In this document: positions 413 to 54,790 of the stretch, piece after piece
Numbering within the stretch: the stretch's first letter is position 1
Layout: each line of letters starts with the position of its first letter
NCBI GenBank assembly: GCA_038363925.1
Contig: JAQQWL010000005.1
Coordinates: 2,852,001-2,916,000 of the forward strand
Length of the DNA stretch: 64,000 nucleotides
DNA from: Apiospora phragmitis
Lineage: Eukaryota > Ascomycota > Sordariomycetes > Amphisphaeriales > Apiosporaceae
Reading direction: 5' to 3'
The notes under the pieces: model-generated
What the model was told of the DNA's origin: nothing
The model's input: the letters and a program-made list of their open reading frames with translations, nothing else
Database searches by the model: none
Translations under genes and position numbers: made by a program

Positions 413-1441
413 TCATCCCAAGTCTGAGTCCGAGTCATCCAAATCTTGCAAAGGCATAGGAACGAGGTCGTGATTTTCCGGGTGCCTCAACATACACCCT
501 ATATCTCTCTCAGTTGATTCCAGAGGAGAGAGTGGACGAGGACCATGGGAATGCCACTGCAGAAAGTAGTCGACCGTCACCCCGAAGGCGACCAATGTGT
601 CCCTGATGCTGCTCTGCGCATCAAACAAGAAAAGGCTTTCGCCGGGAGTGGGCAAGGGAATGTAGCTGTACCTCTTCATCATGTCATCCACCTCGCAGCC
701 CACGTACCGGAGGCGGGGGAACTGACCAGAACGGTATGCAAACTCTCGTAGAGCGGTGCAGGCGCTGAGTATCCGTTGCAGTTCGCCCTCCTAAAGCCAG
801 CCGCTTGTAAGGTGAAGGCATCGTAGATGCGAAAGGGGAAGCCGCTGCTCTGGTTGCCCAAAGATCCTGTTGGAGATGCTAGAACCGTCAGCTTTCAACG
901 TTCGCAAGCCTCTGGAAAGTTATCAATGATTCTTGCGATCAATTTGACCAAGCTGCGTGGCTGCCTCACCCGCTTCCCATTGGGTCTATCCATACATCGA
1001 TGCTCGTAAGAGGCAACCTCTTGACCTGCTGGAGGAAAGAGGGTTCATATTCGACAAAGTCGACGACACATTCGCCGATGCTGTCTGTGGATGTAATATT
1101 TGCAGCCGTTCATGTAGAAGTGGTGCAAAACAGACTGCGCCGGTACTCGCAAGGCCTGGGAAACAAGACACAGGGACGATAGACTTCCCTTGTCTTTCTG
1201 GTATTGATCCACGGCTGCTTCGTGATTTTCACAGTGACACCTAAGTGAGATTACGAGCCTTGTTACCTAGGCGTATTGTGTTGTCGTCACTCCCGATTTC
1301 GCTAGAGATGTGATCAGAGTAGATGTCACGCAGCACTCCCGTAGTCGCCAGGTGGCAATACCCGCAGAATTGGCCAATAACGAGATACAAGAATTCGATG
1401 GGCAGCTGGTCGAGATAGATCCTCGCGCGGTTGTCGGCCAT
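413..1441 (-). pseudogene. F-box/leucine-rich-repeat-like protein remnant
   Basis: Read from 1441 downward, the first segment contains LPIEFLYLVIGQF, which resembles the start of a fungal F-box (substrate-adaptor type). The last 900 bases give LRR-like text such as LSHLRCLHL and ACTALREFAYRSG and end at a stop at 413. The parts do not form one frame. The first segment stops at 1241, a frame change is needed near 918, and an in-frame TAG lies at 791-793 between the LRR-like HLTSGWL and EGELQRIL. Introns may explain part of this. If intact the product would be an F-box/LRR-like protein of roughly 300 residues. The family call rests on short motifs only. The TAG could derive from CAG by a C-to-T change. 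Confidence 0.42.
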
Positions 1442-1828
1442 GGCTGTTGGTAGGGTGTTACTTATCCAGTCTGCGACGGTAATATAATGAAACGTTTGTA
1501 AGTGGGCAATGGTTAAAAGGAAAGGGGATCAAGTTCTCTTAATACTATATTCACTCGGGCCGTTTAAATTACATGGCGCATAGTCGTTACCATGTTATCA
1601 TTGAGTTGGGAAGGCAACGGTGGAGTGGCCCCCGTATTTCTCCTGGTCCGGAAGTGCGGAGCAATTAGGCACACCATATAACGGCCACAAGGAACATAGC
1701 GTCACAGTTACGCTTATGTTAGCGATGATATTTACAGTGTTGTCATTCCAAGATAATCCTATGTATTCTCTCTACTAGCACCCCATTAAGGTTCATCGAT
1801 CCTACATGGTCACCACATCTACTCTACT
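1442..1828. other. intergenic, nothing recognised
   Basis: AT-moderate spacer between the F-box-like remnant and the first paralogue of the CxH...CxxC family. No gene, repeat or RNA was seen. Confidence 0.4.
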
Positions 1829-2783
1829 CTACAAGGCCTTCCAAGTAGCCAGGTGGTCCATAAACGTTATATGAAGGTCATTGACATTCTCAAAAGACGT
1901 TTTCAACTCACCCGCCATCGTCATGACCACTTTGAGCTGATCCCGTGAGTGGACTGTAGAGTTGTCAGCAGCAAACTGGTAGAGACCGTATATCTCCAGT
2001 TTGAGCTTCTTTACAGCTTCCACCAGCTTGGAATGGTAGACGTAGATGCTATATTCGTGCGGCTGCCGCCTCATAGGCTGGAACACCCGGCCAAACTCCA
2101 TCAGGTCCATTTTGGTGGGTTTGAACATGGCGGCATACCGCATCGCCGCGTAGGCGATATCAGCAAGCAGACCGCCCAAATCCGCCGGCCATAGCCGCCT
2201 CTCGCTTCGCTATAGCGTCGATGATGCCAGGCCAATCGGCTGGGGTGCGATAGGCCTTGATGGACCCTCCCGCGCCTTCCGCAACGATGGGCGGGTTCAT
2301 GGCCCCGATGGCGCTCCGGAGCTTGTTTTGCTCCGTCTGGTTGGTGATGTACCGGGTCGCCACGCGCTGGGACCACTGGGCCAGCAGCGCGATCAGCTCG
2401 GGGTTGGGATCCGCGACTAGCCGGTTGGCTATGTGGTATAGCATCGCAAGGAGGGAGTGTGCGTGCTCTGTACCCAGGTGCGGGTAGCGCAGAACCTGCG
2501 CACGCATGTTGACCATGGTGGGTGAGGTGGTAAGCAGTCAGCAGTCGGCGCAGCACGTTTCGACTTGACGGCCCATATTGGGCCACTCGGGCACCAAGTG
2601 GTGCATGGCCAGCGTGTCGTAGAGCTGGCTAGTGTTGTCGCGTATGGCGGCACGATCGCCACAGATGTAGAGGAAGCCGGTGTTGAGTATGGTCTCTCTC
2701 GGGGGCCCTTCCCCAGTCGAAACCAAGGAGGCAGTGTCCGAGGACTGTTGCGAAGAGCCATGAGATGAGTGTTGGGAAGTCAT
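1829..2783 (-). pseudogene. CxH...CxxC family protein, copy 1 (broken)
   Basis: First of four paralogues in this window; function unknown. From the start at 2783 the protein has a Ser/Thr/Gln-rich lead, then TGFLYICGDRAA and, about 35 residues later, TCCADC, corresponding to the CxH and CxxC zinc-site-like pair of the intact copy at 19408. A TGA at 2538-2540 directly follows CADC. The same frame then continues for more than 120 residues, including HSLLAMLYHIANRL, aligning with SASLMFHDLWTAL of the intact copy. Near 2170-2180 the frame shifts by one base and the C-terminal helical part follows to 1829. Two lesions make a pseudogene the simplest reading. It is closest to copy 2 (4000-4988). No donor-like GT was found that would splice out the TGA. 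Confidence 0.72.
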
Positions 2784-3999: not shown

Positions 4000-4988
4000 T
4001 CATATCATACCTGGGTGAAACGCGTTCGGCATCTTGGTTTGATGGTCGCACCATGCCTCGTAGCGATTCAGCGTCACGCCACTCAGTCGTACCACTCTCT
4101 CAAATAAGGCGTTCATATAACGCACAGTCTCCACCACCGCCTTGAGCTCATTCCGCGTCTTGGCGAGAGGGTGGTGCGTAGCATCACGGAACAACGAGTA
4201 GCACTCCACCTTGAACTTACGGACCGCATCCGCCAGCTTCTCATGTTCAATATGGATTCTACTGTTCCGAGGAGGGAATAGTTTCGGGTCCTCGTTCCAT
4301 TGCGGGGACGTATCTTAGTATTGGCCTTGAATGTAGCCGCTACGAGGATTCCGCCATGGGCAATATCCGTGAGTAGTGGTCCAACGACGGCGGGCCACGG
4401 TTTCCAGACAGACCAGCGGATCCTGCGGGCGCGCTTGTCGAACCTCGCTACCGCACGTTGATACCTACACGCGCAGCTCTCGGGGTGGGTGAGTTCTAGA
4501 GGCATGTCGGAAGACGAGCGCCACACCTGGATCGAGCGCAATACGTCGCGGACCACCAGCCGACTCATCGTAGCGCCGATGGGACGGGACTTGATGGCGG
4601 AAAAGAAGGCGTCGAGGTGCTCCCTGGGGTACTCGTGCGCTATACGGGCTACCCAGTGGACCAGCAACGAAAGGTGCACGGTACGGGTTTCATCCGCCAT
4701 GATGCGGTCAGCGAGGTGGTAAAACATGGCGAGCAGGGAATGCGATTGCTCTTTCTTCAGTACTTCGCGAAGCACCTGTGGCCGCTTGACAAGCACCTAG
4801 CCGTCATCGCGTATCTTCTAGCACGGAGAACATATCGTGCCAAGAGGAATATCCATGTCTGGTGTTTCCGGCGCCAGGCCCCTGGCTCGCAGCTCAATCT
4901 GCAGCTTGGTGGGTACACCGCCAACTTCGGCGCGGTGGCCGCAGCAGTACAGGAAGCCAGTATTGTGAATGGTTTTGATTACCATCAT
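4000..4988 (-). pseudogene. CxH...CxxC family protein, copy 2 (broken)
   Basis: Second family member, same orientation as copy 1. From the start at 4988 it reads TGFLYCCGHRAEVGG, then GTICSPC, keeping the C-x-H and C-x2-C pairs. In-frame TAG codons follow immediately at 4818-4820 and seven codons later at 4797-4799. The frame then continues with HSLLAMFYHLADRIMADET and a long helical region. Near 4240-4280 it shifts, and the C-terminal ECYSLFRDATHHPLAKTRNELK part is in another frame down to the stop at 4000. The first stop sits at the same alignment position as the TGA of copy 1. Both TAGs would read Gln if they came from CAG. Pseudogene most likely; function unknown. Confidence 0.72.
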
Positions 4989-7528: not shown

Positions 7529-8825
7529 TTAGTTGTAAGGGTTGGTGCCGAGGCACTGAGCGTACTCAGCCGAGCAGGTGCTCATGTTCGCGTTGGGGGG
7601 CAGCGCGGCAGGCGTCAGCCTCGCCGGAGCACATGTCCTTGCAAGAGGCCTTCTGGGCGCTGCAGAACGACATGTTGGCATCGGGGGCGGTGCGGCAGGC
7701 ATCATCGGCGGCCTCGCAGTTGCCCCGGTGGACGGCGGAGCCGGAGCTGGACTGGGGGGCGTCGCCACGCTTGGCGTAGGGGTTGGTGCCGAGGCACTGC
7801 GCGTACTCGGCGGAGCAGGTGCTCATGTTGGCGCCGGGCACGGCGCGGCAGGCGTCGGCCTCGCCAGAGCACATGTTCTTGCAGCTGGCCTTCTCGGCCG
7901 AGCACTGCGCCATGTTGGCACCGGGGGCGGTGCGGCAGGCGGTGTCGGCCTTCTCGCAGTCGCCCTGGTGGACGGCGCTGCCGGAGTAGCCCTGAGGGGT
8001 GCCGCGCTTCTTGGCGTAGGGGTTCTCGCCCAGGCAGCTGGCGTAGTCGGCCGAGCACTGCGCCTGGTTGGCGTCGGGCGCGGTGCGGCACTGGTTGGAG
8101 TCGGCCTTGCAGGTGGCCTTGCAGGCAGCCTTCTCAGCGGAGCACTGGGCCATGTTGGCGTCGGGGGCGGTGCGGCAGGCGTCGTCCTTCAGGACGCAGC
8201 CGGACGCGGCGGCCTTGCTCTTGGGGGCGGGGAAGTAGACGGCATCGCCAGTCTCGGAGTGAGGGGCGGGGAAGTAGACAGCGTCGCCAGTCTCAGAGTG
8301 AGGGGCCTCGTCGCGCTTAGCGTAGGGGTTGTAGCCCAAGCACTTGGCGTAGTCACCGGCGCACGCGGCCATGTTGGCATCAGGGCCGCCGCGGCAGGAG
8401 TCGGCGGCGGTGGAGCAGGTGTCCTTGCACTCGGCCTTCTGGGCGGAGCACTCGGCCATGTTGGCGCCGGGGGCGGTGCGGCAGGCGTCGTCCTTGAGGG
8501 CGCACGAGGCGTCGGCGACGGCGTCCTTCTTGGCAACGGCGGACTGGGGCTTCAGCGACTCGTCGAGGGACTTGCCGGTGCAGCCAACCAGGCTGGCGGC
8601 GCAGGTGGCGTGGTTGGCGTCAGGGGCGGTCGAGCAGCGGTCGAAGCTGACCTTGCAGGCGCCGATGCACTGGGCGACGGCGATGTTGCACTCGACGGAG
8701 GAGAGGCCGTTGTTGGCGGTGTACTTGCGGCAGACGTCCTCGCTGCTGGCGCAGGTAGGGCCGGCAGGGGCGGCGGCGGCGCAGTAGGCCAGGATGGCAA
8801 TAGCGATGGCGTTGTTGAAGTACAT
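7529..8825 (-). CDS. secreted protein of four Cys-rich modules with dibasic linkers
   Basis: No named family recognised. The N-terminus MYFNNAIAIAILAYCAAAAP is a signal peptide. A degenerate lead with Cys pairs (residues 25-82) is followed by four modules starting near residues 108, 210, 290 and 370. Each has eight cysteines spaced C-x6-C-x10-C-x6-C-x3-C-x6-C-x10-C-x6-C, i.e. two half-repeats built on CRTAPxANM..CSA..A.C. Modules end in NPYAKR, NPYAKKR or NPYAKR, which look like Kex2 processing sites, followed by short linkers (SGSAVHQGD, SGSAVHRGN). The first linker carries a perfect 13-residue tandem duplication (PHSETGDAVYFPA). The last module is broken by one extra base in a six-G run at 7595-7600: in the main frame the protein stops at 7566, while the shifted frame completes the module and ends at 7529 in NPYN. 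Strong codon bias supports a real, expressed gene. Role (adhesion, antimicrobial, effector) unknown. Confidence 0.8.
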
Positions 8826-11171
8826 TATGGCGGTAGATTAATGTGTGGTTTTGGGTGTTTTTAGAAGGAGTGTTGTAGTTGGAGAAGAACGAAAGTCGTT
8901 GGTATTATTAAGGTGGTTGTATTTGTATTAGTGAGTGGTGTAGGGGTGATGATGGTGGTAGTAGAATCTTTTTCCAACGAGCGATCACCGTCCGCTTTAT
9001 AGGATATGTCGCCGTTCTGAGGCGCCCCGTCGAAAACTCCATGAAATATTGTGGAGCTCTCGTTGTAGGCATGATCAGCATTCGCTGGTGGTTTTGGTGG
9101 GGTAGACCGGGCAGAGCTTTTTCTGGAATACGAGACTATTATTAGACCCTGTCCCAAGAATTTGTTTTGACCGCTCGTTAGCTCCTTCCATGTCGGTATA
9201 CCTAGATGCAGAGATACCGGGTTGACAGTAAAGACAATAGCACAGCACGCGCGCCTACCAGTCTGCTTGCGTTGCGCCTCCGACGAAAACACAGCTATTC
9301 ACAACGAAGCCGGCGTTTTGCCCCTACAACGTCCGGACACCCCGAGTCCGGGACAGCCGTGTGGTCTCTCGCGGATGGCAGTGTAGGGAGCGGCGCTAGA
9401 AAGCATTGAAACCTTCTAGGGCGCCGCACCAACTGTAGCTGCCGCGTGGCTGAGTCTAGAGGAACATGGAGAAGCAGCCTGGCAGCGGGACGGGCTGGCG
9501 GCAATGCCGGTAAGGGCTGACACCAGCTCTGCCAACTCAGTGGAAAATCGGCCACTATCCAGCGCCAAGACCTTCCCCTGACCCCGAATACCCGCGCAAA
9601 CTCAGTTACATCGTGCTGGCATCAGTCGTGCCTTACGGCTTTCCTCGATAGAATAGGGCAGGACAGCAAGGTGCAGTCGTTGATTGGTTGACAACTAACT
9701 AATAGATGGGCCTGGCAACCCCACGGCAGCTGGCAATCCCTGCAACCCGGTCGGTAATTCAGGGGCAGCCCAAATTGCAGCGGGTCCCTCGTAATGAGAA
9801 CTGACAGCAGGGCAGGTCCCACCCAACACGACTGCCATACGGAGTATTGGCTGTGGATAGCGGAAGTCTTATCCTCCCCCACAGTTCCTGTCACTAGTCA
9901 AATTCTTAGTCATTTTCTATCTCTTTGTACAAGGGCCTCTGTACGAAACACTGCACGAAAGCTCCAAGTCAATCTCAAACATAAAATAACCGCAGTACCA
10001 ACTAGGAATGATCAGCAAACACTCCCTGTGTAGCTCGCGATTCCCCCGATGTAGGACCTTCTGCCATCTCGGCCTTTGAGAGATTTTGTGCCTGTGGATA
10101 GAGAACAAACAGCACAGCGGAATTTGGGCTGGAACGCTAGGTACACCTCAGTCGCGGCCCAGTTGCTCTCCTCACACGAGACTATTGTGCAACTCACTGG
10201 GGCTTTGAAAGAATCTGTCAGAGATTTGCTCGGAGAGTTGGGCTGTGCCAACCAAGACCCCGACAGGGCTGGCGGGCTGAATGGGCGGACGTTGCTATCC
10301 ACATATATAACTGGGCTATCTTGGAGATCAATTCAATAATGAACGGGTTGTTTACCTTATACGAACGAAGCACGCGCCTCGCCACTATGAATAGACTCAC
10401 GACCAAAAAGACAAGAAACTTAAATCAGTAGAAACTATACCCAATAGTACGCTCTAACGTTTTTGTGAAATGGGCCGGACTCTGGCTCGTGGTACTTGGA
10501 CGATCTTATCATCTTCCACAGCCTAGTCCCTCATTGCCCTTTGACACGAGGCAATGAAGGGCACCTGGTGGTCATAACCCGATTGACAGCAGAGGGCGGT
10601 TGGGATGCAAAATCTAGGATTCGAAGCAACCTGCCTTGCCAGGAAGAGAAATATCGCTTGTAGGGCAGTGTTGAAAGTAGATATCAAATTCGACGTGTGG
10701 CTTAGCGTAGCACCTCCACAGTGGCGCCCTACCCCTGTACCCACTGCGATAACTACTTACATACCTGGTTCAACCACTAAGGTGAACAACTGAATTTCTA
10801 TATGTACACTCTGCGATCTTGAAGGGCCTTCCTGGTATTACTCAAAGATGTGCTATAGAAAATGTAGTTTGCCCGATTCTGGCTAATGTACCAAAAGTGG
10901 CGGGAACGGTCATGTAAATGGAAGGTTCTGGTCTGGCATTGTCGTGGTGTGTCATGCAGGACTATGGCAGAAGCCTTACTGTGGCCTAATACCGGCCGCG
11001 ACAAGCGGACGTCTCCTGCTTATCTAAGCTCTAGAATTGATTATGCATGCTTCCCCGCAAGATCCCCCCGGGTTCTCTTTGTGAACCTGTCGCGGCTACT
11101 CTCAACGCATCCCGTGATATGCACTATTGGATGAGGTTCCTTGAAATACCGCCTGATAATTCTCTCTCGCC
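8826..11171. other. long intergenic stretch, nothing recognised
   Basis: About 2.3 kb with stops in all frames and no recognisable domain. It contains the upstream regions of the divergent Cys-rich secreted gene (minus) and Ras-like gene (plus). No repeat ends or RNA genes were seen. Confidence 0.45.
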
Positions 11172-13128: not shown

Positions 13129-13135
13129 AGCGGGT

Positions 13136-13171
13136 CTGTCGCAATAGGGGTCAGGGGTCAGAGCACCCTAG
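13136..13171 (-). repeat. right arm of the 35-bp dispersed inverted repeat
   Basis: Reverse complement of the segment at 3614-3648, beginning seven bases after the stop of the Ras-like fusion gene. Together the arms bracket about 9.5 kb holding family copy 2, the aldolase-type gene, the Cys-rich gene and the Ras-like gene. Confidence 0.6.
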
Positions 13172-16358: not shown

Positions 16359-17442
16359 TCTGATTGAGCTCAGGCAAACACAGATGGGAAAATGGGCGAA
16401 GTTGAATTCAATTGGAATTGAGTGAATGAATAACTGTCGGTTTTGTTTCGGTTGTGCCTGGTGCGGGGTTAAGGGGTGCGGCGTAAGTTGAACATGCCAC
16501 TGGGACAAAAGCCGACGGGAGGCTGCATATGCACAAAGCAAACACTCTCCGGGTTGATAACCAATTAAACATACCTCTGGGATAAAAGCCGACGCACCGA
16601 CTTAACCATAAGTGGTGTGTCGGTATATATTTCTACAGGGGCTGTTGGTCGGCTAGTGCACTCAATAGCCGGCTGGGCTGGGAAAAAGGGGCGGCAGAAC
16701 AGCCGAGAACTGAAACCCCGGCCGACGATCTCCCGTATATCACATAATACCCAGCTTTTGCACCCGAAGAAATTACCTTGGACTCTAATATCTGTTAACA
16801 TAAAGAAAGGCCTTCTTACTGATCGCTCTTTGTTTGTGTTTTTGACCGACGTCTCATTTCCCCTACGAGTCCATAGCATAACAACCCGTCAGGAAAAAGA
16901 CACAGAGTTCGAGCTCTAATATAATTAAAACATCATAATGCCGAGAGAACCATCACCGTGGCCACGTACGTAGTCCAACAATCCTATGCCAATGAGTGAT
17001 AATCCGCAATGCCTAGGATTCAGGGGCGTGCACCACCACCGTGAGCATGTAACATCGATGGGTAAAGGTGAACTAAGCTCAAGCAATTCTGGAAAGAGAT
17101 TGAAAACTGGCCCAGGTAAAGCAATGGCCTTGTTCTCGAATCAACTAGGTTGTGATGTGAATCGCCGACATGTTTTGAGGCAAGAGGGTTGGGTAGTATA
17201 AAACCATCACTCGAGCACAACATTTACCTGTTCAATTTCCTTGTGACAATAGAATATAAGGCTGATAATAACATGACGAGCGCTCCGAGGAACACCTCGG
17301 AAGTGTGAGGGTCCATCTCCAAGCATAAAATGGACTTGCTAGGCTATCTCAGTTCGGGACTTTTGGATAGTCCGCAAACCCTCGACACTGTCCACAACCA
17401 GCAATCAGAACATCAACAAACCATATCCACACAGAACGATTG
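16359..17442. other. intergenic, nothing recognised
   Basis: Divergent upstream region between the 2EXR-like gene (minus) and family copy 3 (plus). No gene or repeat was recognised. Confidence 0.4.
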
Positions 17443-18546
17443 ATGAACAACCAGTTTACAAGAATGGCTGGTGAAATTTCAACTTCCTCGACGGCACGAC
17501 TGGCCCCGGAGAAGATTGTTTGGGGCTGTACACATGTCAGTAATGTCTCCGACTTGAAACCACACCATAAAGAAATATTCAAGTGCTGTGTTCTGCGGGG
17601 GCTGAATGATCCTCCAGGTATGTATGCTTACCTTCAGAATCATTGCCACGTCTGTCTTGGGGCGCAGGCGCCGGTTACGCCCAACCATCTATGGGATCAG
17701 CTGGCCTGGCAACCGCTGAAGGCCCAGGATTCCGCGTGCAAAGACCGCGTCTCGATCATGATGTTTTTCCACCATATATGGAACGCCTTCTGCTCCACGA
17801 AATGTTTAGAGGAAAGACTCCGCAGCAATGACCCTATGCACCTCGAGGCCCTGTCCATCTTGCGCCTCTGGTGCAAGACGGTAACGCTGGGCTTGTGCAC
17901 GGGGGACGACCCGACCGCCCTGACTAGGCTTCTGATGGTCATCGAGGACCTGCACGGCCCCCTTGCGCGCCAAGAGATTGCGAACATCACGGAGCGCTAT
18001 CAGCGCCTGCTGAATCCCCGACTGACCATGGATCAAATTTGGCCCGCCGAAGAAGGGGAGCGGGGCAGGCTGTTCATGGCGCAGGCACAGGCGTTTCGCG
18101 ACCGTGTCCGGGGAGGCCGAACCTTCCCGGCGGACTTCACTCGCGAGTTCAACAACGTCTGCGCTTCGGCCAGCGCCTGGAGCGGTGAGCTCATAGGCCC
18201 TCCACAGGTACTCGACTTGAGACTAGACATCGTCCAGCCTGAAGTCCGGTTCCCAGGCGAGGTCGAGCGTTTGAAGGAGCTGATCGAGACTGTCAACGTA
18301 GAGGCAATGAGGTTCAAAATGCAGCTCTACGTGCTCTTCCGACGCTCGCGGGATTCCGAGGCACTCCAGGACGAGGAGCAAATGATGCACTTATTGGATC
18401 TAGTCGAGGCTCTAGAAAAGCGGGCCTCCTTGAGACTTCTTCCTCTTCAAGTCAGATTGCGCCAAGAATGGGACACATGGGTGGAATACGCTATGCCGAC
18501 CATAGAACACATTCGGGCCGAGGAGGCAGCGGAAGCAGTAGAGTAG
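17443..18546 (+). CDS. CxH...CxxC family protein, copy 3 (intact)
   Basis: Single-exon frame of 367 residues from ATG 17443 (a second in-frame ATG is at 17464). The N-terminal pair is WGCTHVS and HCHVCLG, equivalent to the C-x-H and C-x2-C of copy 4, suggesting a small zinc-binding head. The rest is predicted helical, with paralogue-matching blocks SIMMFFHHIWNAF, LRLWCKTVTLG, FNNVCASASAWSGELIGPP, VNVEAMRFKMQLYVLF and LEKRASLRLLPLQVRLRQEW. It is closer to copy 4 than to copies 1-2. No signal peptide or membrane span. Function unknown. The next gene on the same strand is the paralogue at 19408, a tandem pair. Confidence 0.8.
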   Translation: MNNQFTRMAGEISTSSTARLAPEKIVWGCTHVSNVSDLKPHHKEIFKCCVLRGLNDPPGMYAYLQNHCHVCLGAQAPVTPNHLWDQLAWQPLKAQDSACKDRVSIMMFFHHIWNAFCSTKCLEERLRSNDPMHLEALSILRLWCKTVTLGLCTGDDPTALTRLLMVIEDLHGPLARQEIANITERYQRLLNPRLTMDQIWPAEEGERGRLFMAQAQAFRDRVRGGRTFPADFTREFNNVCASASAWSGELIGPPQVLDLRLDIVQPEVRFPGEVERLKELIETVNVEAMRFKMQLYVLFRRSRDSEALQDEEQMMHLLDLVEALEKRASLRLLPLQVRLRQEWDTWVEYAMPTIEHIRAEEAAEAVE

Positions 18547-37867: not shown

Positions 37868-38763
37868 AGGCCTGTGTCTGGATTTGAATATGTCGATGAA
37901 GAAAGAGGAGAACCAGTACCAGGTTGTGGATCCTGTTTTTGTTGCTCAAGCAGTCTGTCTGTTTTACTCCCTAGTGGTATTGGCACATATACATAAATAA
38001 GTATGGATAGAATGAGCGCATTCTCCGCTACGGTAGAGGCTATCATCAAGCTTGTATCGGTCCATGGGAGTTACAAAAGGTAGTTGGCTTGGCTTTACAG
38101 ATAACCTAAAGCATCGGATACGATGGTCTATTTTTGAGTTCATGTAGTCCACGGACGGTATGAGTTAGTTTGTACCTTGTATATGCTCGGGGGTAGCCTG
38201 TTGGTTGTGGTTGTTCGATCTGGTGTGCTCTCTTGGCATTGGATTGAAGTTACAAGAAGAGCACGAATAGGGAACCAGAAGAGGCAAACTCTGAAACGGA
38301 TGCAATATCACGCGGCAATAAAATATTGCATATTACATGCTCGTTCGTATTGGAATTCGTTAATCGTTGCCGATGAAAGGACACTTATTGGCACCCACAG
38401 AGATGTGGCGAGAAGAGCAACATCAAGCGGCAGGATTAAGTCAATGGGTAACCGTAGCATCGAAGTAATTATTTCTGGATGGGATGCAGTCCAGATCGAC
38501 CAACCATGTATTCATACGTTCAACCGCAGGTACCATATGCTCGGGACCATGAGCCAAGGCCAACCCCTCCCTGATAGAAGGGCAGTCTCGCCGTATTGGA
38601 ATGTCCTCCAAAAAGATGACATGAACAACTATGAATGATGATACAGAACGGGACAACCTGCCAGTGTCCATGACGTCGTCGCAGACCGTGGGCAGAAAGG
38701 AATATGCCAAGCCATTTCAGTTCCAGGCCCACCGAGATGTCATCGCGTATCTATATGCGCGCA
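37868..38763. other. intergenic, nothing recognised
   Basis: No RING1-like CxxC cluster was recognised on the minus strand that would complete the RBR gene, and no other coding frame was supported. Confidence 0.4.
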
Positions 38764-39441
38764 ATGGATTGGCTGACATTGAAAGAGACCATGCAAGTCA
38801 TGGAGAAGCGATACAACTTCTTCGCGACGTACGACTGCCGGGCTTAGGCCTGCGCCCGGAGCGACCGGTACGAGGAGGGTTGGAGGCTGCTGGACGGCGT
38901 CGCGGAAGCCGACCTGGCCCGTTCCTACCCGGAGCACCCGGACGACGCCATTTCCTTCTACGACACGCGCGCGCTGCTGGCGCGCAGCGACGAGCGGCAG
39001 TCCCCGGCGCAGGTTGTGGAGGCGGCGACGGCGCTGATCGATCTGCTGAAGACGCGGTACGGCTTGGCCGATCACCGCACCATCGACGCCCAGGCTGACG
39101 CTGACCTCGAAGCTTGCCTGCGGAAAATGGGATGCGACGACCAGACCGAAGAGGTCAGGCAGGGCATCTACATAGCGCTGGACGCGGTCGGGGAGAAGTT
39201 GACAAGGGGAGCGTGGTGGACAAGCCTCGAAGTCCGCCCATTGGGAAACGTAGCTTCCATAGGCTCATCCTGTCGCACTGTGTATGATAGTGCTCCAATG
39301 CTTTATACTGGTCGTTGGAAGTATCGAGCGATGGGACAACCAACTGGCACCGATTCTTGTGCGATAGGGGGTGGCTGCCCTCCGCACTTTGGTGTAGAAA
39401 GGAGTCGCAAACGGGTTGATGGTACACTATGGGTATCGTGA
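38764..39441 (+). pseudogene. unrecognised protein with one in-frame TAG
   Basis: Not recognised. From ATG 38764 (MDWLTLKETMQVMEKRYNFF) the frame is coherent except for one TAG at 38845-38847, after ATYDCRA. It continues with ACARSDRYEEGWRLLDGVAE, HPDDAISFYDTRALLARSDE, AATALIDLLKTRYGL and WWTSLEVRPLGNV. The part after the TAG is GC-rich with coding-like third positions until about 39250; the last 60 codons look less coding-like, so the true end is uncertain. No signal peptide or membrane span. The stop would be CAG (Gln) before a C-to-T change, or Trp after A-to-I editing. Its 3' end converges with MZM1. Confidence 0.45.
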
Positions 39442-42540: not shown

Positions 42541-42555
42541 GTGTGTTCTCTCAGT

Positions 42556-43844: not shown

Positions 43845-45169
43845 TCATACGACGTCCGGCCACAGACGCTTATACCACCAATGGGTCTCGTTATTCTCGC
43901 CAGCATGCTGATACACCTCATCGATGCCCACGCCCTCGCTTACTAGGAAGTCCACCATGGAGTCCAGCCCGTGCATCCGGGCGACGGCCATGGCCTATGC
44001 GCCCGCCCAGGGCGGATCCAGGCGGGCGCCGCGGTCGCGCAGCAGGTGGAACAGGTCCGACCGCTCCAGGTACACGGCGATCGCGAGGGGCGGCGGCCTG
44101 CCCGCGTCGGGGTCTGCGCCGTGGTCCAGCAGCAGCCGCGTCAGGGCCGCGCTGCCCTTCCATACGGCCAACGCCATGGGCGGCCAGGACCAGTAGCGGC
44201 AGCGCCACTCGGGCTAGTTGGGGTCGGCGCCCCCGTCGTCGAGCAGGATCCGCGCCGTCGCCTCATGGCCGTTCTCCAGTGCCTTCGTCAGCGGCGTCGT
44301 GCGTCGGTAGCCGCTGACCTTCTGCGCATCTAGCCGTACGCCCTGCTGAAGGTGATACCGCACCATCTCGGGGAGTTCCCGGCCGGCACTCGCCTCGAGC
44401 CATTCAACCGGATTTCTGCGGTTGGCCTGGGCCCCAGGAGCGGTTTGGTGCGCTGGAAGTGAACCGGCCACCGTATGGCTTTCGTTACGTCCCATAATAA
44501 TAAGACGTCCGCCGAGACTTGCGACTGATGATACTTGAAGGCCAGCTCAAACATCTCTTGGTGACCGTAATTGGCGGCGGTGATTATCACATTCAACCAT
44601 TCCCTCTCTCTGTGGGGTTTTTCCAAGACCGAAAGAAGCATTTCCCACATCTCGACGTTCCCTTGCATCGCGGCGGCCTGGAAGCTCTTACCAAATATCC
44701 AACTCTCTTTTTCTTCTAACTCTTCGTCGACGATAGGGAAGCCCTCCTTGATCCGTTGTCTGACGTAGTCTTTCTTGTCGAGCCATACAGCGGCCACAAA
44801 GAGGTCTATGCTCAGCTCCTGCTCCGAACATGTCCTCTTCGGCTGGTGATGTTGGTCCCCTGTCAGTGCTCCTGCGCATCTGGCCACGGCGAGGCGGACA
44901 AGGGTCTCGACTCGACTCGCGATTGCGTGCTTCCCTGCCTCACCATCAAGAGTGGCAAGACTTTCCGCTGCGCCGTAGATGCGACCGAGCAGTGATACAC
45001 GATACCGCTCTCTCATGACCTGGTATGTTAGATAGGAGTAGATGAAGCGCCAATGGTCTTGGTGCCTATATCCGTAATCGTAGGCACAAGGGCTCGGTAG
45101 ATAATCCCTGTCGTCTCCAGGACGCCAGTCGAACATCCGGAGACGAAAGATTGCATCGTCAACGTGCAT
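43845..45169 (-). pseudogene. ankyrin-repeat protein, broken
   Basis: From ATG 45169 a 279-residue frame (MHVDDAIFRLRMFDW...) contains ankyrin-like units such as SFQAAAMQGNVEMWEMLLSV and NVIITAANYGHQEMFELAF. It runs out of frame near 44400-44480. A second frame carries EMVRYHLQQGVRLDAQKV and TPLTKALENGHEATARILL. TAG codons at 44214-44216 and 43995-43997 interrupt it, yet the same frame goes on with SAALTRLLLDHGADPDAG, ERSDLFHLLRDRGARLDPP and MHGLDSMVDFLVSEGVGIDE to the stop at 43845. A protein of about 430 residues is implied. Both TAGs fit former CAG codons. The gene lies directly beside the RIP-like block, so leakage of RIP into it is plausible. Confidence 0.68.
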
Positions 45170-45249
45170 TTTGAATCGGCCTTATGGTCAGAGGTTAGCG
45201 GCTGGTTAAAAGTGCCTCAGCAGCCGTTCAGGAATCCCAAATCTTACGA

Positions 45250-46960
45250 CTAACCCGCCGAAGCCGCATGAAGCGGCGCTGATCGCGGAGTAAGACGGAA
45301 TAATCGATAATGAGCTAATTTATTACGTTTTATTAAAAACCTTATAGCATAAACGAAATAGCTAACTTATATAATACGAAATACCTATAAATTCTCGAAA
45401 GCTGTTAAATTTTAAAAAAGATACGATTATTCGATATATTATTAATTTAAATACGCGATCGTTTCTTCCCTAGCTAAGTGGTATAAAAGATATAACGAAT
45501 CGATTATTTAACTTACGCGACGCGGGACGCGTCGGCGTTAATTAGGCCTTTAACTTCGTACGATAATAACTAGACCTCCGGACGCGTTTTAACCGAAGAA
45601 TCGATTATTAAAAAGTTTTTTATAAAGATCTCGACGCGTATTACGCGTAGTTTATTTTTATACGAAATATAATTTATAAATACGAGATTTAAAAAGAGGA
45701 TATTTATAATTTTAACGAGACCGGCTTTTTTATAGGCTAAATTTCGTTCGAAATAATTATAACCACCTTTAATTAATACGGAAAGCCTAGGGTAATATAG
45801 TAAAAGAACTAGGAATAGGTTATAATTATCTAGGGCGTCGGATTATACGGTTACGTTATCTTTTTATATATTATCTTTATTAAGAAAACATACTTCTCTT
45901 TTTAATATAAAAACAGCTTATTACGAAAGGATTAAGTAATCGTAATTATTAAAAATAACTAAACCACGAATAAAAGAGGCGAGGACTAGATTCGATACTT
46001 TAATTAATATATTAAGTCTCGTACGAAAAGTCGTTATCGCCTCTTAGTCTTAAACGGCTACGAAAGCTATTACTCGATAACTTTTAAGCTCTACTATAAA
46101 AAGAACTCGATTATTATACTTTATATGCTTTCTTATTCGTTATATAAGCTCTAACCTCTTAATATCGGCTATTTTCGTACGTTAAAAAAGGCGTACGAAA
46201 AAGAAATTAAATGTTTTATACGGGCGCATATTACCTATATCTTAAAGGAGGACTTCCTACTAGCGTTTTTAAAAGCGTTCTAGGCGATTTTTACCGTTTC
46301 GAATATATAAGGAGGCTTTTAAAAGATAAGACTCGTTTCGTATAATTTAAAATATATTATTTTATAATTAAATATAAAGCTATATATTTTAATACCTTTA
46401 AGGACGTTTTTTAGCCTATTTATTCTTTAAGAATTAAAAACTTTAAATAACTCGATTAAGGCTTAATTTTAAACCGAATATATTCGAAACCGTATTATAC
46501 GGTATTAAAATAACTTTTTAACGTTTATTTTAATTAGTTTTAATTAAATCGTAAAGGCTATAACGTATATTATATACCGAGTTACTCTTTTAAAAAGTAA
46601 GAACGCGACATTTCGAAAAGTAAATAAAATATTTAACCGGCGCCGCCGTACGAAAAAGAAACGGTTATAAAATAAAAGATTACTTTATATATAAGTTAAA
46701 AAAGACTTATAGTTTTAAAAAAATATTAATAAATAATTATAAAACGAATCGCGTTGGGAGGAATAGTCGTACGAGAACGTTTAGGACACGCTTATAACGC
46801 TATAGAATCTACGGAGAGCCCGGGCATAATACGCGCACTTATTAAAATAATATAGAAATATTTAAAGATAAGGATTCCGATTAATTTTAATATATTAAAT
46901 ACGTTATAGTAAAATTAACTTATATTTTATTAAAAGGGGTGTAAAAGAATGAGATATTCG
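45250..46960. mobile_element. AT-rich RIP-like block (dead transposon)
   Basis: About 1.7 kb with abrupt drop in GC, dominated by TA-rich words (TTATAA, ATTAAT, AATATA) while CG-containing words such as TACGCG and TTCGTA persist. That is the product expected from CpA-to-TpA mutation of a duplicated sequence. No open frame survives and no clear terminal repeats were found. Borders are by composition only. It separates the ankyrin pseudogene from the secreted-protein island. Confidence 0.6.
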
Positions 46961-47106
46961 CTTGTATGAGACATTCGCTCATAGGATACGTTATATATAA
47001 AGGAAAACGAATTCCAAAAACCACTTATCACCGATAACGGCACTCCAATCAGCGCTCTAGCATAAACAAATCCCAAGCATCATCAAATTTCGAAGTTAGA
47101 AAGACC

Positions 47107-48165: not shown

Positions 48166-49198
48166 ATTGGATGAAATATTGTAACGACCGTTGAGTGGTT
48201 TCGAAGGGACTCTTGCAGAGGATATGAGAAGGTCTTGTGACGAATCAAAGAAGTCACAACGAGAGAGGCTGTATGTGTCAAGGTCTTGCAAGATAGAGTG
48301 AAGAGATACCCGTAGGGGTAGGTGTGTGCATTCACTGAACTCTGGCCCTCCAACTGTCTGGGAGGACCACTAGACTTATATACCTAGCGGCGACCTCGGC
48401 GCTCTGCAGCCGGGTATCAGACCCTTGTCAGGTGCAACCCTGACAGTATGATAGCTATGTACTGTTGTGTGAGCAGCAAGATGAAGAGTATGTATTTGTG
48501 TTGGAGTGGTAATGGTGATGGAGGGTTGCTTATGGACAATATTTTCTTTGCAGCAGGTGATTCCGCTCTCAGATATATATACCTATGTGGGTTTTGTATC
48601 TATATCTGTCTAATGGCGCATAGGATCAACTGAAATCCAACTCTGAGCCATACCTGATGTTCCGAACATCCCATTGCAGGATACCCTCTTATTTCGTGCT
48701 GGAAGGGCCATCATCCAACGGCGCCTTCATTCGAGTAAGTTGACTATGAATATAAATTCCTGGCAATTTGGGGGCTATCACAGCAAATCGAAAGACACCA
48801 GCTTGCAGGTAATCAATTACGGAGCATCTGTTTGCGGATGGTTTGTTGGTAATCGTCCTGTGCTACAGTCCCACTACCAATTTGCGCCATTGCACCAACA
48901 GCCGCCCGGAACGGATATGTTCCTCCGATGGCGGGTCGGAACTTCAGACCTGGGCCTGTCTTCGCTCCACCGTATTGTTCACAAGCATCATGTTCGAAGT
49001 CCTTTGGCACTATTATTAGCATCAGCATGTTCAATCGATCGAGGATGGCTTACTTTTGCCCCAGTGTCATAGAACGTCGCCTCACTTACTGAAGCTTGCA
49101 TAAAGCCTGCACTTGGCCTTCTTTTTCAACTGCTATCAACCCCTCAGGAGTACTGTCCCCTTTATGCCAAACCATATCTGTTGTTTTTCTTCATAATC
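48166..49198. other. divergent promoter region of two secreted-protein genes
   Basis: About 1 kb between the minus-strand and plus-strand secreted-protein genes. No gene recognised. Confidence 0.4.
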
Positions 49199-50610
49199 AT
49201 GGGTCTGAGCCAAAGCCAACACACAGGCTGGAGGGTGCTACTCGCCATCCTTCTAGCTGCCCAAGCCAGTGCCAAAGACGTTCAGATCAATTTCTGGAAC
49301 TCATCGGACTGTAGCATTCAAGATCCCATGACCGCCTCCAAGGTCATCTTCATGCCAAGGGACAACGACGATCCTACCCAGGGAGTCACCTGCCATGCAC
49401 CCATCGGAACCCAATTGTTCCAGGGTTGGCTCCGGGATGAGCATAGTGATTTCGTCGTTGCTCATGTCGACACACGCCGCTTTGACGACAACTGCCAACT
49501 CGTCTTCTACAACACCAAACCACCTTTGAGCCAGCCCCAGGAGGAGATCGATACAGGTCCATGTTGGCAGGCTTACCGCCGGATCACCAAAGACTCAGGC
49601 TGTCCCAGTGTTACGTTCCAACCAACACAACTGGCCATGTCGTAAGATAAACCCTCACTTCCACCCTTGAACGCAACGGCGGCTGACACGTTTTCCAGGT
49701 ATTGCTGCGGAAAGTACTGCGCCGTGCCGCGAGGCTTTATGGGCACAAAGGATCCTGTATGGCCTGCCGTCCCGACCCTGGACAAGAACATACCTGACCT
49801 CTTTGGCACCATCGACGGCCTTATTGACAAAGCCGGCAGCTGGTTCGGCCAACGCCGCTCCGTAGCGGTGGCGGCGACGGACGGATCCGAACTCGATGAC
49901 CTGCCAGCGGGAGGCGAGTTCGAGGTCGAGGTCGGGCCCGCTGGCGACGAGGACATGGCGTTGTCGCCACGAGCGCTCAAGTCGGCGCCCATCTACTGGC
50001 CGCGAGCCCCGCTCCAGCCAAGGCGGGCCAGCCCAATGCCATCAAGTGCAAGTTCCAGAGCACGACGCGGTCGCTCTACACGTACCTGCCGTCGGTGCAG
50101 ATCGCGAACTACCAGGTGTGCCTCTCGGGGACCGGGTTCTCGGGCACGGCCTGCCCGTGGACCCTCAGCTACTCGTCCGATGAGTCCCTCATGAACACGC
50201 AGTCGCTGTCGGCCTCGGTAGGCGCCTCGCAGCGCCCCGAGGCACTGATCGCGTACCTGACCGAGACGTTCGGCTGGGAGGGCTCCTCGCCCATCACAAA
50301 CGGACAGAGCGTCGGCTACTCGTAGGTCTTGGACCTGCCCCAGGGCAGGACTGGCTACCCCAGCTTCAAGTAGTTGATGATGTGTGAGTAATACACCCCT
50401 TTGTTGCCAAGTTCGTCCAATTAAAATGCTACGCTGACTAGTCGATATTCAAAAGGCGCCAATGGGACCTTCACCGATTGCGACATCACGGCGGTCTCCC
50501 TGCTGCCAAATCAAGAATACTGCCTCCCTGTCATCAACGCGACTATGGGCCAAGACAAAAACCAACAGAAGGTAGCCGTTGGTTCAATGACTGTTGTTGA
50601 CATCCCCTAA
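49199..50610 (+). pseudogene. secreted Cys-rich protein, frame broken
   Basis: From ATG 49199 a signal peptide (GWRVLLAILLAAQASA) leads into a Cys-containing domain: NFWNSSDCS, QGVTCHAPIG, FDDNCQLVFY, GPCWQAYRRI. A 57-bp intron (49642-49698, GTAAGA...CCAG) joins to YCCGKYCAVPRGF. Near the four-C run at 50007-50010 the frame shifts by one base. The new frame reads AIKCKFQSTTRSLYTYLPSV and NYQVCLSGTGFSGTACPW. Two in-frame TAGs follow (50323-50325 and 50371-50373) with coherent VLDLPQGRTGYPSF between them. After another intron a last exon gives NGTFTDCDITAVSLLPNQEY and ends at TAA 50610. Product about 440 residues if intact. Family not recognised. A transposon lies 40 bp downstream. Confidence 0.62.
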
Positions 50611-50650
50611 ATGTGGTCTCATAATATCTCAGTGTTTGGGATGGTATGAC

Positions 50651-52519
50651 TAACGTACGTCACCCCATAATTGACCCCCCCCCTGTAATTGACCCCCTAA
50701 TAAAATTAAAGGTATAAATTAACCACCAACTCCAAATAGTTACCATTCCTTCAATTTTGGACTATAATACAATCGCTTTTAACCGTAGATACAATAGATA
50801 TTTTAGAATCCGATTCCTTAATTTCAAGCTGGTCTGGCCCCTCCCTCGTACGTTGTATGCTCTTAATTGATATAAATTTCGAATTCGGGCTAATCTATAC
50901 CCTTCGCTTCTTTCGTAGCCTTGCGAGCTCTAACTTTTCTTTTAAGGACTATATTTATAATTCCGTATTAATTAATAAATAGTCCTTTTTTTAATATCTT
51001 TTTTAAATCTTTTTAAATAGCTAGTGTTATATAATAAGGTCGTTTCAACTTAATTAATAAAAGTGCCGAATTTAACGCTCTAAATTAATAGACCTTTTTA
51101 GTGTTAATTATAATATATTATTAGTTAAAGGAGTTTTTATAGGTGTAAAGGCCTTATCTTAACTAGCTAAGGCTTGTGTTGTCTCTTCCGGTCGCTTTCG
51201 GTTACTGTTTTCGAATAAAAGAGGGCTAGTGAGTAGCTTAGTAATATATACGGGCTAAAGACTATTACCACGTTAACTACCCTTAATATTTTAAGTTAAT
51301 AAAGCTTTTTTACGAGCTTTAATATAGTATATAAAGAAGTTTTATTTATTAATAAAGGCTAAATTTATTAATAAGGATAAGAAACCGATCTTTTTTTAAT
51401 AATAAGCCTTTATAGGGGTAAAGATTTTAATATCGAGGGGTTAAAGAATATATAATAAATAAAGGGGTAAAAATAATAAGTAAATATTATTTTAATAATA
51501 AAGGGATATAAAATCGTTAATTATATAATTATTATACCTATTTAGAATAAATAAACGGGCATTTTTTAAGTCGTTCGGGGCGGTTTCCGGTATAAAGATA
51601 TTTTCGAGCTATTTAACAGCGATTTCGTTATTCGTCCAGCCTTTATTGCTCGTATTAAACTTTTATCCTTAAAATTTATCGAGTTCTTAAGGGAATTATT
51701 ATTTTTAAACCGATTTGCTTTTATAAATTATTAAAGGAGGGATAGCCTTATTAAGTACCGATATATATTTTAATATAGTCGTCTAGTACTTTAAATTAAG
51801 CTGTTTTTATTAAATAGAATATAATTTCGAGCTATTTATTATAAAATTATTACCTCCTTAGCTTTTTAAGATACCGTGCTCGTTTATATTATACCTGTTT
51901 TTAAGTTTAATAGCTTAAATTTAAGGTATACGTAATTTAGTTAAAAACTAACACTTAATTACCTTAATTAATACCCTATTAATACGCTAGGAATCGATAT
52001 AACGTTACCTTTTTATCCGTAAGGCTAGGTTATATTAAAGGAATAACTCTATCTAGTTTTTACCTAATAGTATAGGGTTGTTATAAAGGGTTAAAACGCG
52101 CTAAGCTAATTCCTTAATTTACGTATATATTAGTGCGACGCTAAGGGCTTTTTAAGCTAAAATCTAATCTATTAGATGCTTCTCTTTAATTAAAGAGAGC
52201 TTTTAATAAGTAAATTTTAATTCTCGACGTGATTATCGGCCGTGAAGTTAATTAATAAAGGTAGACCGTAAAATACCTTAATAAAGGGCAGCCTTATAAA
52301 TAGATTTACCGCTTGTTATATCTTAGATGGCGGTAGAGATATCGTTTTCGGTATATGAACGTACTATTAATAAATTAGTATATATTTAAAAGAATGAAAT
52401 AATTCGGATCAGAATTCGTTAAGAAATCTCTTTTTGAATCGAAATGGCGGTGAATCGTGGTAGAGGTCGACAGGGGGGTCAATTACAGGGGGGGGTCAAT
52501 TATGGGGTGACGTACGTTA
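50651..52519. mobile_element. pogo/Fot1-like DNA transposon, RIP-degraded, TA-flanked
   Basis: The two ends are inverted copies: 50653 onward starts ACGTACGTCACCCCATAA and continues through a 9-C run, TGTAATTGACCCCC. The reverse complement of the end at 52517 is the same apart from one C in the run. The terminal repeat is about 45 bp. Both ends are flanked by TA (50651-50652 and 52518-52519), the Tc1/mariner/pogo target duplication. The 1865-bp size matches fungal Fot1/pogo elements, which carry one DDE transposase. Here the inside is TA-rich with no open frame, as expected after RIP. C-runs in the ends survive because RIP acts on CpA. Confidence 0.8.
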
Positions 52520-53719
52520 AGTGGTGGTTCGCTGAGTACTAAGACGCGATCCGTACCATTATCAGGCGTGGGAGTTACTATACATTCCTTTTACTATAAA
52601 GACATTTCTATAGCTTTATACATAAAGTCTGGTTACCTTAACGCCCCTTTACTCTTTACTCTTTACTCTTTACTCTTTACACTTACGTCCTACGGCGACC
52701 TGGTATAATAACACGTAGTTGTTACTGTTGAGCATTGATATAAACTCGATACTGGAGACTAACAGAAACTAGGGACGGCAGTATGAGTGACTACACCCTT
52801 GTGCTGTGATTCTGTCTGGTGGCTTGCCGGTGGCCCTCGGGCAGAAACGATGAGGACTAGGATATGGAAGTTCCTCCGTCTGTAATTATTGCTCAATTGC
52901 GCAACAAATACTTTCTCCAGAAATAACATCACATTTCCCCAAGAAGGAATAGTCGTGGAGGACTAGCAGAACAGGAATCCATGTTAGTATTATCCCAGCA
53001 AGTCATCACCGCATTGTGCACTGAAACAGATAATCTCTATCTCTGTACGTGATTTAGCATGCAAGCTTCGGTAAAACAGTGTCTTCGGAAATTGCTCTCT
53101 TTTGGTTGCATGGTCCGCATTGGTTGGTCCGAAGAGGCTGTGTAAGCGGCGTCTCTCTAGCTTGAATAATAATAGTATACTCGGCAAGATTAGGGCTGGT
53201 GTTATGCAAAGGGAGAACGGCTTGCATGCAGATCGATTGCATCCAACATTGGCATCGTGTGGGGTCTGAACAAGCTTTGACAAGGATGCCGGAATACCTT
53301 GCTGCGAGAAGGTGCACCCGATCATCCACAACCACCAACCCCTCACAAATATCATACGAGAATGAAAATTGAGGATGGTATCATCATTTAGTTGGGTTTA
53401 TTTCGTTTCTATCTTTAGCCATGGGGTCCGGAGGGATTGGGTGCCTGTCAGCGCTGGCCAATGAGATTATCGTCGGTAATTATAGTCGGTCCATGCCACG
53501 TGTTGGAGTTCAGGTCGCAGGCTGACCGGTCGACTAAGACGGTCGCCGAGCTGGCAACAAGTTCCCGGTTGACTGTATACACATGCGCTGATATAAGTAT
53601 CCCCCAATATCCCCCCTTAGACATGATCTAGTCCGTACCAACTCGCCTCCACCTCACCTCATCCCATAGTACATCTTTGAAGCCAAGTCCTTACCACAAC
53701 AACTCTCGCTATTGTCATT
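52520..53719. other. intergenic with TTTACTC microsatellite
   Basis: About five tandem TTTACTC units lie at 52648-52681. Otherwise no gene recognised. It includes the upstream region of the secreted gene at 53720. Confidence 0.5.
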
Positions 53720-54790
53720 ATGTGTGCCGCTGGCTCCTTCCTTGCCATTGGCATCACTTGCCTTGTCAATCTCAACATCACCAATGGCCTCGCCATCCAG
53801 CCTAGAGACGTCGGCTTTGCTTTGAGCAGTAGCCTATTGCAGCTGAAAGCACGTGCTCCGGCCCGACCAGGCAGTTCCGGTTCAGGCGGGAGCGGAGGCT
53901 CCGGCTCGCTGAGTGAAAGCTCTCGTGACAGCAACCCCGCCCGGAAGAAGCGGCCCTCTACGATGAGGACCGGCTCGTCCCGAACTGCGGCCGCGGAGGA
54001 GCTCCAGCTGAGACTTCCATTTGGAAGTCACGCCGAGGCATTCTGCCGTTAGCAAGGACCCCCGGAGCCGTTTGGGTACAAAAACGGGGCCAATGACGAT
54101 TACACTGCCGTCCGGGGCCAGGAGTGGTTCTATGGCCAGGTCGGGCACAGCAAGAAGTACGAGCCGGTGTATGGCAGCGACCCCGTCATGGAGTACGCAG
54201 TCAGCCCGGCCGTAGGTGGGATCCACATCAGAGGCATTTACACGGCCGAGGGCATCGACCACCAACCGAGACCCCAGCCGGTGGACGTGCAGAAGAGAGC
54301 CCTGATGATCAACCGGTACGTCGACGCCAGGGGGAAGCTCGAAAACCTGAAGTACCTATCCAACTGGAACATCGAGAACGTACCGGGCCGGAACGCGTTC
54401 ATGAACGCCTATAACACGGCCAGGAACCAGGAGATCCCTGAAGGCGGGTATCTGGAGATCAAGCCAGGACAAGCGGGTTGGGCTGAGTGGGCGAATGACA
54501 ACAACCCCTTCTTCAAGGGTTATCAATCGATGTTTCGGGAATACCCCATTAGGAAACGCATTGGTCGTGTCGTTCTGTTTTACAACGTTTTGGGGAATAC
54601 AACGCTCTTACCGTCTTGGAGTAGTAAGAACTCCAAATCGTGGCTACGGTGGAGGATATTGCACTTCCAGCGTTGCACATCTTTTACCGCACGATTGGCC
54701 AGGGACAGCAGAGCCTACTACCAGGCTGAGATAATTTTGGAGGATTGCTCCTGGATTATGAACGCACCTTTTGTAGTTGGCTCGGCTTGA
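53720..54790 (+). pseudogene. secreted protein with Gly/Ser linker, one in-frame TAG
   Basis: The N-terminus MCAAGSFLAIGITCLVNLNI is a plausible signal peptide, followed by LAIQPRD and a Gly/Ser/Pro linker (about residues 45-75). The frame meets TAG at 54050-54052, directly followed in the same frame by GPPEPFGYKNGANDDYTAV, GQEWFYGQVGHSKKYEP, YAVSPAVGGIHIRGIY and NAFMNAYNTARNQEIPEGGY. This is clearly protein-like and runs to 54790. The last 60 codons look less coding-like and may follow a further shift. Between 53940 and 54050 a second frame (PEEAALYDEDRLVPNC) also looks plausible, so compensating indels cannot be excluded. Family and function not recognised. It sits in the transposon-bounded secreted-protein island. 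Confidence 0.52.

What the first reader, a model, noticed from the sequence alone, without database searches (positions are those of the whole stretch)
791..54052. Ten in-frame TAG codons in otherwise coherent frames
TAG interrupts readable protein frames at 791-793, 4818-4820, 4797-4799, 12622-12624, 38845-38847, 44214-44216, 43995-43997, 50323-50325, 50371-50373 and 54050-54052. There is one TGA (2538-2540) and no TAA. In every case the same frame continues with family-like sequence. The TAG bias fits CAG-to-TAG transitions (RIP-type CpA change in GC-rich coding, where Gln is mostly CAG). It also fits the stop-loss A-to-I mRNA editing known from sexual stages of Fusarium and Neurospora, where UAG is the favoured site and becomes a Trp codon. 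The Ras fusion (12622), the gene at 38764 and the secreted gene at 53720 have TAG as their main or only lesion and are the best editing candidates.
Basis: partly seen in the sequence, partly recalled or inferred. Interest (0 to 1): 0.75.

Follow-up and report, generated by a model that had tools for sequence, protein, structure and literature searches.

The report
TAG stops in decayed fungal genes
The in-frame TAG stop codons are real, but most of them sit in recently broken fungal genes that also carry deletions, frame changes or an inserted repeat, so ordinary gene decay explains them better than RNA editing.

Summary
All ten TAG codons and the TGA stand at the stated coordinates. The genome is Apiospora phragmitis. 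Six of the eight loci involved show a second lesion that an A-to-G edit could not repair. The Clr5-domain gene (38845) lacks about 285-320 codons and changes frame. The ankyrin gene (44214, 43995) has a RIP-mutated repeat at its 5' end and a frame change. The LRR-like gene (791) survives in pieces in three frames. The 2538, 4818/4797 and 50323/50371 genes change frame. A CAG origin is not supported: the residue is Trp at 38845 (8 of 8) and 43995 (11 of 14), Glu at 791, Leu at 4818; at 44214 the nearest have Trp, Trp, Ser (Gln in 3 of 14, all distant). TAG is the expected commonest stop: 54% of one-step nonsense changes from local codons give TAG. Among listed HET-domain matches of this genome, single-stop cases are 9 TAG, 8 TGA, 8 TAA. 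Trp to TAG is also a CpA-type change. Editing itself is untested for lack of RNA.

The parts
494..1483 (-). LRR/F-box-like pseudogene in pieces (1483-1352, 1230-1105, 1082-972, 916-494) in three frames; TAG at 791-793
   Evidence: tblastn of the own-genome paralogue L060 (open for 581 aa); residue at the TAG is Glu in L060 and L061
1829..2684 (-). CxxC-motif gene with TGA at 2538-2540 and a frame change near 2160-2209
   Evidence: 36% identical to the 4818 gene over 160 aa; Leu at the stop column in the two open paralogues
4000..4964 (-). CxxC-motif gene with TAG at 4818-4820 and 4797-4799 and a frame change near 4300
   Evidence: the two copies differ as much before as after the stop
17371..18546 (+). 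open paralogue of the CxxC family, 391 aa
19348..20571 (+). open paralogue of the CxxC family, 407 aa
11304..13128 (+).
   Evidence: splice signals; paralogues L013-L015
38631..39204 (+). Clr5-domain pseudogene: 38631-38774 in one frame, about 38770-38829 and 38833-39204 in another, residues about 69-385 of P0117 missing; TAG at 38845-38847
   Evidence: relatives P0117-P0124, Trp at the TAG in 8 of 8; pieces mapped with 4 of the 8
43849..45314 (-). ankyrin-repeat pseudogene, TAG at 44214-44216 and 43995-43997, frame change near 44430, gap (likely intron) between 45240 and 45181
   Evidence: relatives P0002-P0015
45316..46993 (.). dispersed AT-rich repeat with RIP-type mutations, adjoining the first matched codon of the ankyrin gene
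   Evidence: 41 near-full-length places including this one, a lower bound; left edge at 45316 in 9 of 11 compared copies; 2130 transitions against 47 transversions
49196..50380 (+). secreted-type gene with an intron at 49642-49695 (by eye), a frame change near 49990, and TAG at 50323-50325 and 50371-50373
   Evidence: no other match in the own genome
53720..54790 (+). orphan secreted-type frame with TAG at 54050-54052
   Evidence: only this genome's own 200-aa model P0125 found

Best explanation
The TAG codons mark ordinary, recent decay of accessory genes on one stretch of an Apiospora phragmitis chromosome. Shown: six of the eight loci carry a second lesion (repeat at the 5' end, deletion of some 300 codons, frame changes, missing blocks), and relatives with open or full-length frames exist for five of them (Clr5, ankyrin, LRR-like and, distantly, the two CxxC genes). 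Shown: the relatives found have sense codons at the stops, and these differ from site to site. Inferred: TAG predominates because codons that end in G (GAG, AAG, CAG, TGG, TCG, TTG) can become TAG by one change at the first or second base, with a possible push from CpA-type mutation, which turns TGG into TAG rather than TGA. Inferred: the decay is recent, because the sequence after the stops still matches relatives about as well as the sequence before them.
For: Second lesions: Clr5 gene; ankyrin gene; LRR-like gene; both CxxC genes; 49196 gene, frame change without a splice donor there. Expected TAG share 0.54 from 4393 local codons, GC3 0.73. Listed HET-domain matches: single-stop cases 9 TAG, 8 TGA, 8 TAA; all stops 22 TAG, 14 TGA, 15 TAA, by my count of the printed rows, some of them in introns. 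Of 13 TAG codons in 11 fetched HET loci, 8 could be placed: Trp 2, Gln 2, Tyr 1, Glu 1, Phe 1, Ser 1 (two of them by eye). The ankyrin and Clr5 genes are five locus tags apart both in A. phragmitis (004894/004889) and in Apiospora sp. TS-2023a (015494/015499), where both have full-length models. Identity to relatives: Clr5 22 of 30 before and 86 of 129 after the TAG (P0117); ankyrin 128 of 243 and 34 of 69 before, 50 of 72 and 30 of 47 after (P0002).
Against: TAG is 10 of 11, more than 54% (P = 0.012, reader-chosen set). Trp is over-represented: counting 44214 as Trp, 3 of 5 against an expected 0.16-0.23 (P 0.03-0.08), which editing would predict too. One-base frame changes could be assembly errors; for the CxxC and 49196 genes they are the only second lesion. 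54050 has no second lesion that I could show, and 50323/50371 and 12622 have no informative relatives.
Confidence: 0.86

Rival explanations
1. The TAGs are premature stops that A-to-I mRNA editing (UAG to UGG, Trp) corrects during sexual development, as in Fusarium graminearum PUK1 and about 70 other genes.
For: Trp is the relatives' residue at 38845 (8 of 8) and 43995 (11 of 14), and at 44214 in 4 of 14 including the two nearest by score. The automatic models end at, put an intron around, or start after the stop (P0001, P0116, P0125), the three annotation faults described at the CHE1 editing site (PMC11169179, passages read).
Against: The two genes with Trp at the TAG also carry a large deletion or a repeat at the 5' end, and frame changes. 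791 stands for Glu and 4818 for Leu. The relatives found have sense codons at the sites, though a relative with TAG could be hidden by its gene model. Hairpin placement 4 of 10 against 31.7% background. No strong excess of TAG in HET genes.
Confidence: 0.05
2. RIP acted on these genes directly, turning CAG and TGG to TAG.
For: RIP-type mutation is strong in the repeat at 45316-46993, which adjoins the ankyrin gene; TGG to TAG is a CpA change. DNA-methylase-domain genes are present (5 matches at 4 places; not shown to be RID).
Against: RIP indices in the 1-kb windows of the genes are normal (44001-45000: 0.64 and 1.16; 38001-39000: 0.70 and 1.22). If the ancestors had Glu at 791 and Leu at 4818 as the paralogues do, transversions are needed, which RIP does not make. 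Gln only in 3 of 14 distant relatives at 44214.
Confidence: 0.1
3. TAG is read as an amino acid throughout (altered code or general readthrough).
For: Only that the same frames continue after TAG.
Against: The relatives' residues differ from site to site (Trp, Glu, Leu); most of the genes are broken otherwise; TAA and TGA interrupt HET matches about as often.
Confidence: 0.01

Closest known systems
Premature-stop-correcting A-to-I editing (PUK1, AMD1, CHE1 and about 70 genes of Fusarium graminearum; PUK1 orthologue of Neurospora)
   Same: In-frame UAG; Trp in relatives at two or three sites; confused automatic gene models
   Different: Most genes here carry further lesions; the relatives found lack the TAG; two sites are not Trp; no RNA evidence; no hairpin enrichment
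Repeat-induced point mutation (RIP) of filamentous ascomycetes
   Same: CpA depletion and transition bias in the dispersed repeat beside the ankyrin gene; TGG to TAG is of CpA type
   Different: The TAG-bearing genes have normal RIP indices, and two sites seem to need transversions
Pseudogenes of accessory gene families in fungal genomes
   Same: Frame changes, deletions, repeat insertion, stops; full-length relatives in sister species at matching gene spacing
   Different: TAG share somewhat above the codon-usage expectation

Membership tests
A-to-I premature-stop-correction gene | in-frame UAG with the frame continuing | tested here: met
   relatives on both sides of five TAG sites: 791, 4818, 38845, 43995, 44214; the other five TAGs rest on codon scores or on nothing firm
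A-to-I premature-stop-correction gene | relatives have Trp at the UAG | tested here: inconclusive
   Trp at 38845 (8 of 8) and 43995 (11 of 14); mixed at 44214 (4 of 14); Glu at 791, Leu at 4818; no data at 50323, 50371, 54050
A-to-I premature-stop-correction gene | gene otherwise intact | tested here: not met
   Clr5, ankyrin, LRR-like, both CxxC and the 49196 genes have further lesions; 54050 and 12622 undecided
A-to-I premature-stop-correction gene | edited A in a predicted hairpin loop (a preference, not a rule) | tested here: inconclusive
   4 of 10 against 31.7% of 1380 UAG triplets
A-to-I premature-stop-correction gene | UAG conserved in orthologues (reported for PUK1 and CHE1, not required) | tested here: not met
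   8 of 8 relatives at 38845 and 14 of 14 at 43995 and 44214 have a residue there; relatives whose models skip a TAG could be missed
A-to-I premature-stop-correction gene | A-to-G in perithecial RNA | not testable with these tools
   no RNA reads available
RIP-mutated sequence | raised TpA/ApT and lowered (CpA+TpG)/(ApC+GpT) | tested here: not met
   normal in the 1-kb windows of the genes; met by the repeat block
RIP-mutated sequence | repeated DNA that differs almost only by transitions | tested here: met
   for the repeat 45316-46993 only: 2130 transitions, 47 transversions in 17515 aligned columns against 11 copies; of 1279 with equal context CpT 870, CpA 249, CpC 87, CpG 73
Pseudogene | several disabling changes against full-length relatives | tested here: met
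   Clr5, ankyrin, LRR-like genes

The most novel reading that the evidence does not exclude
Apiospora, for which a full-text search together with RNA editing found no paper (for Xylariales listed one, not read), corrects a set of TAG stops to Trp by A-to-I editing. The dead genes of this window would be former members of that set, and living members would exist elsewhere, such as the HET gene of L019, where a single TAG stands at a conserved HET Trp with 194 open codons before it and at least 204 after.
Probability: 0.07. Interest if true: 0.6.

Novelty: new member of a known kind. Interest (0 to 1): 0.22.

Why it matters
It shows how an eye-catching run of TAG codons can arise from codon usage and gene decay, and that a check against orthologues must include the rest of the gene, not the stop alone. 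Trp at the stop is not enough to call editing, because TGG to TAG is also an easy decay step. If editing were found in this lineage after all, such genes would show how edited stops pass into true pseudogenes.

Tried and rejected
Intron acceptors as the source of the TAGs (fungal introns often end in TAG): scanned at all eleven sites with a fixed donor pattern, length limits and a branch pattern; no full set ended at any of them. For 12622 I first took the TAG for an acceptor because paralogues L014 and L015 show an intron there; the canonical intron 12396-12453 makes the in-frame reading possible, so it is left open.

Shared stop column of the 2538 (TGA) and 4818 (TAG) genes: TGG is the only sense codon one step from both, but the open paralogues, which are distant, have Leu there; the ancestral codon is not settled.

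Kinase-family control for a PUK1-like gene with TAG: I looked by eye at 8 fetched loci; no PUK1 orthologue was identified, and one TAG in L080 looked exonic. There is thus no positive control for editing in this genome.

DNA of orthologous Apiospora genes could not be fetched, so CpA-to-TpA counts against orthologues were not made. Family and structure scans of the secreted-type genes gave nothing useful. A promoter/terminator scan is of bacterial type and was ignored. Papers: an Apiospora arundinis genome paper (PMC10999098, passages only) held nothing on RIP. One search read the locus files wrongly and was redone; one search ran on the wrong loci and gave nothing.

Rows dropped: of the 115 hits, 15 were aligned; P0001 is this genome's own model and ends at the first stop, leaving 14. 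Of the 9 hits, P0116 is this genome's own model, leaving 8. Of the HET TAG codons, 5 of 13 could not be placed.
Full report
What was checked. The window is contig C5, positions 2852001-2916000, of a 52.67-Mb, 19-contig genome. C5 is 4166788 bases long, the length of the contig that carries PG994_004894 of Apiospora phragmitis, and that protein agrees letter for letter with long stretches of the window's ankyrin gene. The organism is therefore taken to be A. phragmitis, not Fusarium or Neurospora.

Is the TAG bias more than chance? From 4393 codons of 12 long open stretches of the window that I took as coding, third-position GC is 0.73, and 54% of all one-step nonsense changes yield TAG at the three transition weights tried (0.537-0.543). 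Ten of eleven gives P = 0.012, but the eleven were picked by eye. The score itself favours TAG, the one stop that fits frames rich in GC-ending codons. A wider count does not show a strong skew: among the listed HET-domain matches of this genome (150 of 205 candidates scored), single-stop cases are 9 TAG, 8 TGA and 8 TAA, and all stops are 22, 14 and 15, by my count of the printed rows; some of these stops lie in introns.

The Clr5-domain gene. 38845 lies in a gene with eight relatives (P0117-P0124), six of them named from Apiospora species. The window keeps the first 48 codons in one frame, about 19 codons in another, and then jumps from residue 68 to residue 386 of P0117; against the four relatives mapped, 285 to 320 codons are missing. 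The TAG stands where all eight relatives have Trp. The automatic model of this gene (P0116) puts an intron around the damage.

The ankyrin gene. It reads from 45314 down. The relatives' first dozen codons are not found; at 45316 begins a dispersed repeat of about 1.68 kb (left edge identical in 9 of 11 copies compared; 41 near-full-length places including this one, a lower bound). The repeat is RIP-mutated: the 1-kb windows there have GC 0.36 and 0.27 and composite indices 0.76 and 1.23, and 2130 transitions stand against 47 transversions in 17515 aligned columns. The gene also changes frame near 44430, where too few bases separate the matched residues for an intron. At 43995 relatives have Trp in 11 of 14. 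At 44214 they have Trp in 4 of 14, including the two nearest by score, Ser in the third, and Gln in 3 distant ones.

The LRR-like and CxxC genes. The 791 frame belongs to an LRR/F-box-like gene; the own-genome paralogue L060 (open for 581 aa) matches the window in separate pieces in three frames, with blocks missing, and has Glu at the TAG, as does L061. The 2538 and 4818 genes are relatives of each other (36% identity over 160 aa) and distant relatives of two open genes of the window, 17371 and 19348. Both change frame downstream, and both have their stop directly after a CxxC motif, at a column where the open paralogues have Leu. A search with the 2538 frame found no further copy in the genome. 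The sequence after the stop is as conserved between the two as the sequence before it (codon positions 58, 69, 47 of 120 against 19, 22, 14 of 40), so both stops look recent.

The 49196 gene (50323, 50371). It is secreted-type, has what reads by eye as a canonical intron at 49642-49695 that holds an in-frame TAA, and changes frame near 49990 without a donor site there. It has no other match in the genome, so the residue at its TAGs is unknown.

The Ras fusion. A canonical intron (12396-12453) carries the Ras frame into the frame that holds the TAG at 12622. Three own-genome paralogues of the following segment (L013-L015) exist. They have a longer stretch upstream that the window seems to lack: only 24 residues of it match, at E 0.24. 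By eye the TAG stands near His or Tyr of the paralogues, with low confidence. One paralogue, L013, itself has a TAG where L014 has Trp.

54050. The downstream 245 residues find only this genome's own 200-residue model, which starts after the TAG. No Pfam, NCBIfam or PDB relative supports a function.

RIP, editing or decay. In the genes RIP indices are normal, so RIP at repeat-like strength is excluded; a light CpA bias is not. Trp to TAG is CpA to TpA on the opposite strand, so it fits such a bias as well as it fits editing. Fungal A-to-I editing is known from Fusarium, Neurospora, Sordaria and Pyronema, favours U at -1 and hairpin loops, and corrects UAG to UGG in about 70 genes of F. graminearum (PMC11156358, parts 1 and 2 of 3 read; PMC4817773, passages; PMC11169179, passages). 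In the window 4 of 10 TAGs lie in predicted hairpin loops against 31.7% of 1380 UAG triplets. Editing cannot restore the Clr5 or ankyrin genes. In HET genes elsewhere, 8 of 13 TAGs in 11 fetched loci could be placed: Trp 2, Gln 2, and Tyr, Glu, Phe and Ser 1 each, a spread that fits decay; one TGA (L031) also stands at a Trp, by eye. The printed part was cut, so L024, L031 and L055 were placed by eye against the consensus.

Verdict. The most likely account is recent decay of accessory genes in A. phragmitis, at least two of which (Clr5 and ankyrin) have full-length counterparts at matching spacing in a sister species, next to a RIP-mutated insertion.

Noticed in passing
45316-46993: RIP-mutated dispersed repeat with at least 41 near-full-length places in the genome (this one included), adjoining the 5' end of the ankyrin gene; short inverted matches near one end suggest terminal repeats.
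   Followed up: partly
51001-53000: A second AT-rich block with RIP-like indices (GC 0.26 and 0.38).
   Followed up: no
L019: HET gene with a single TAG at a conserved HET Trp, open for 194 codons before and at least 204 after; the best single editing candidate met outside the window.
   Followed up: partly
2538-2540 and 4818-4820: Related neighbouring genes with different stops (TGA, TAG) at the same column directly after a CxxC motif.
   Followed up: partly
L013: Paralogue of the 12625 segment with a TAG where L014 has Trp.
   Followed up: partly
7566-8837: Secreted-type protein made of repeated Cys-rich units.
   Followed up: no
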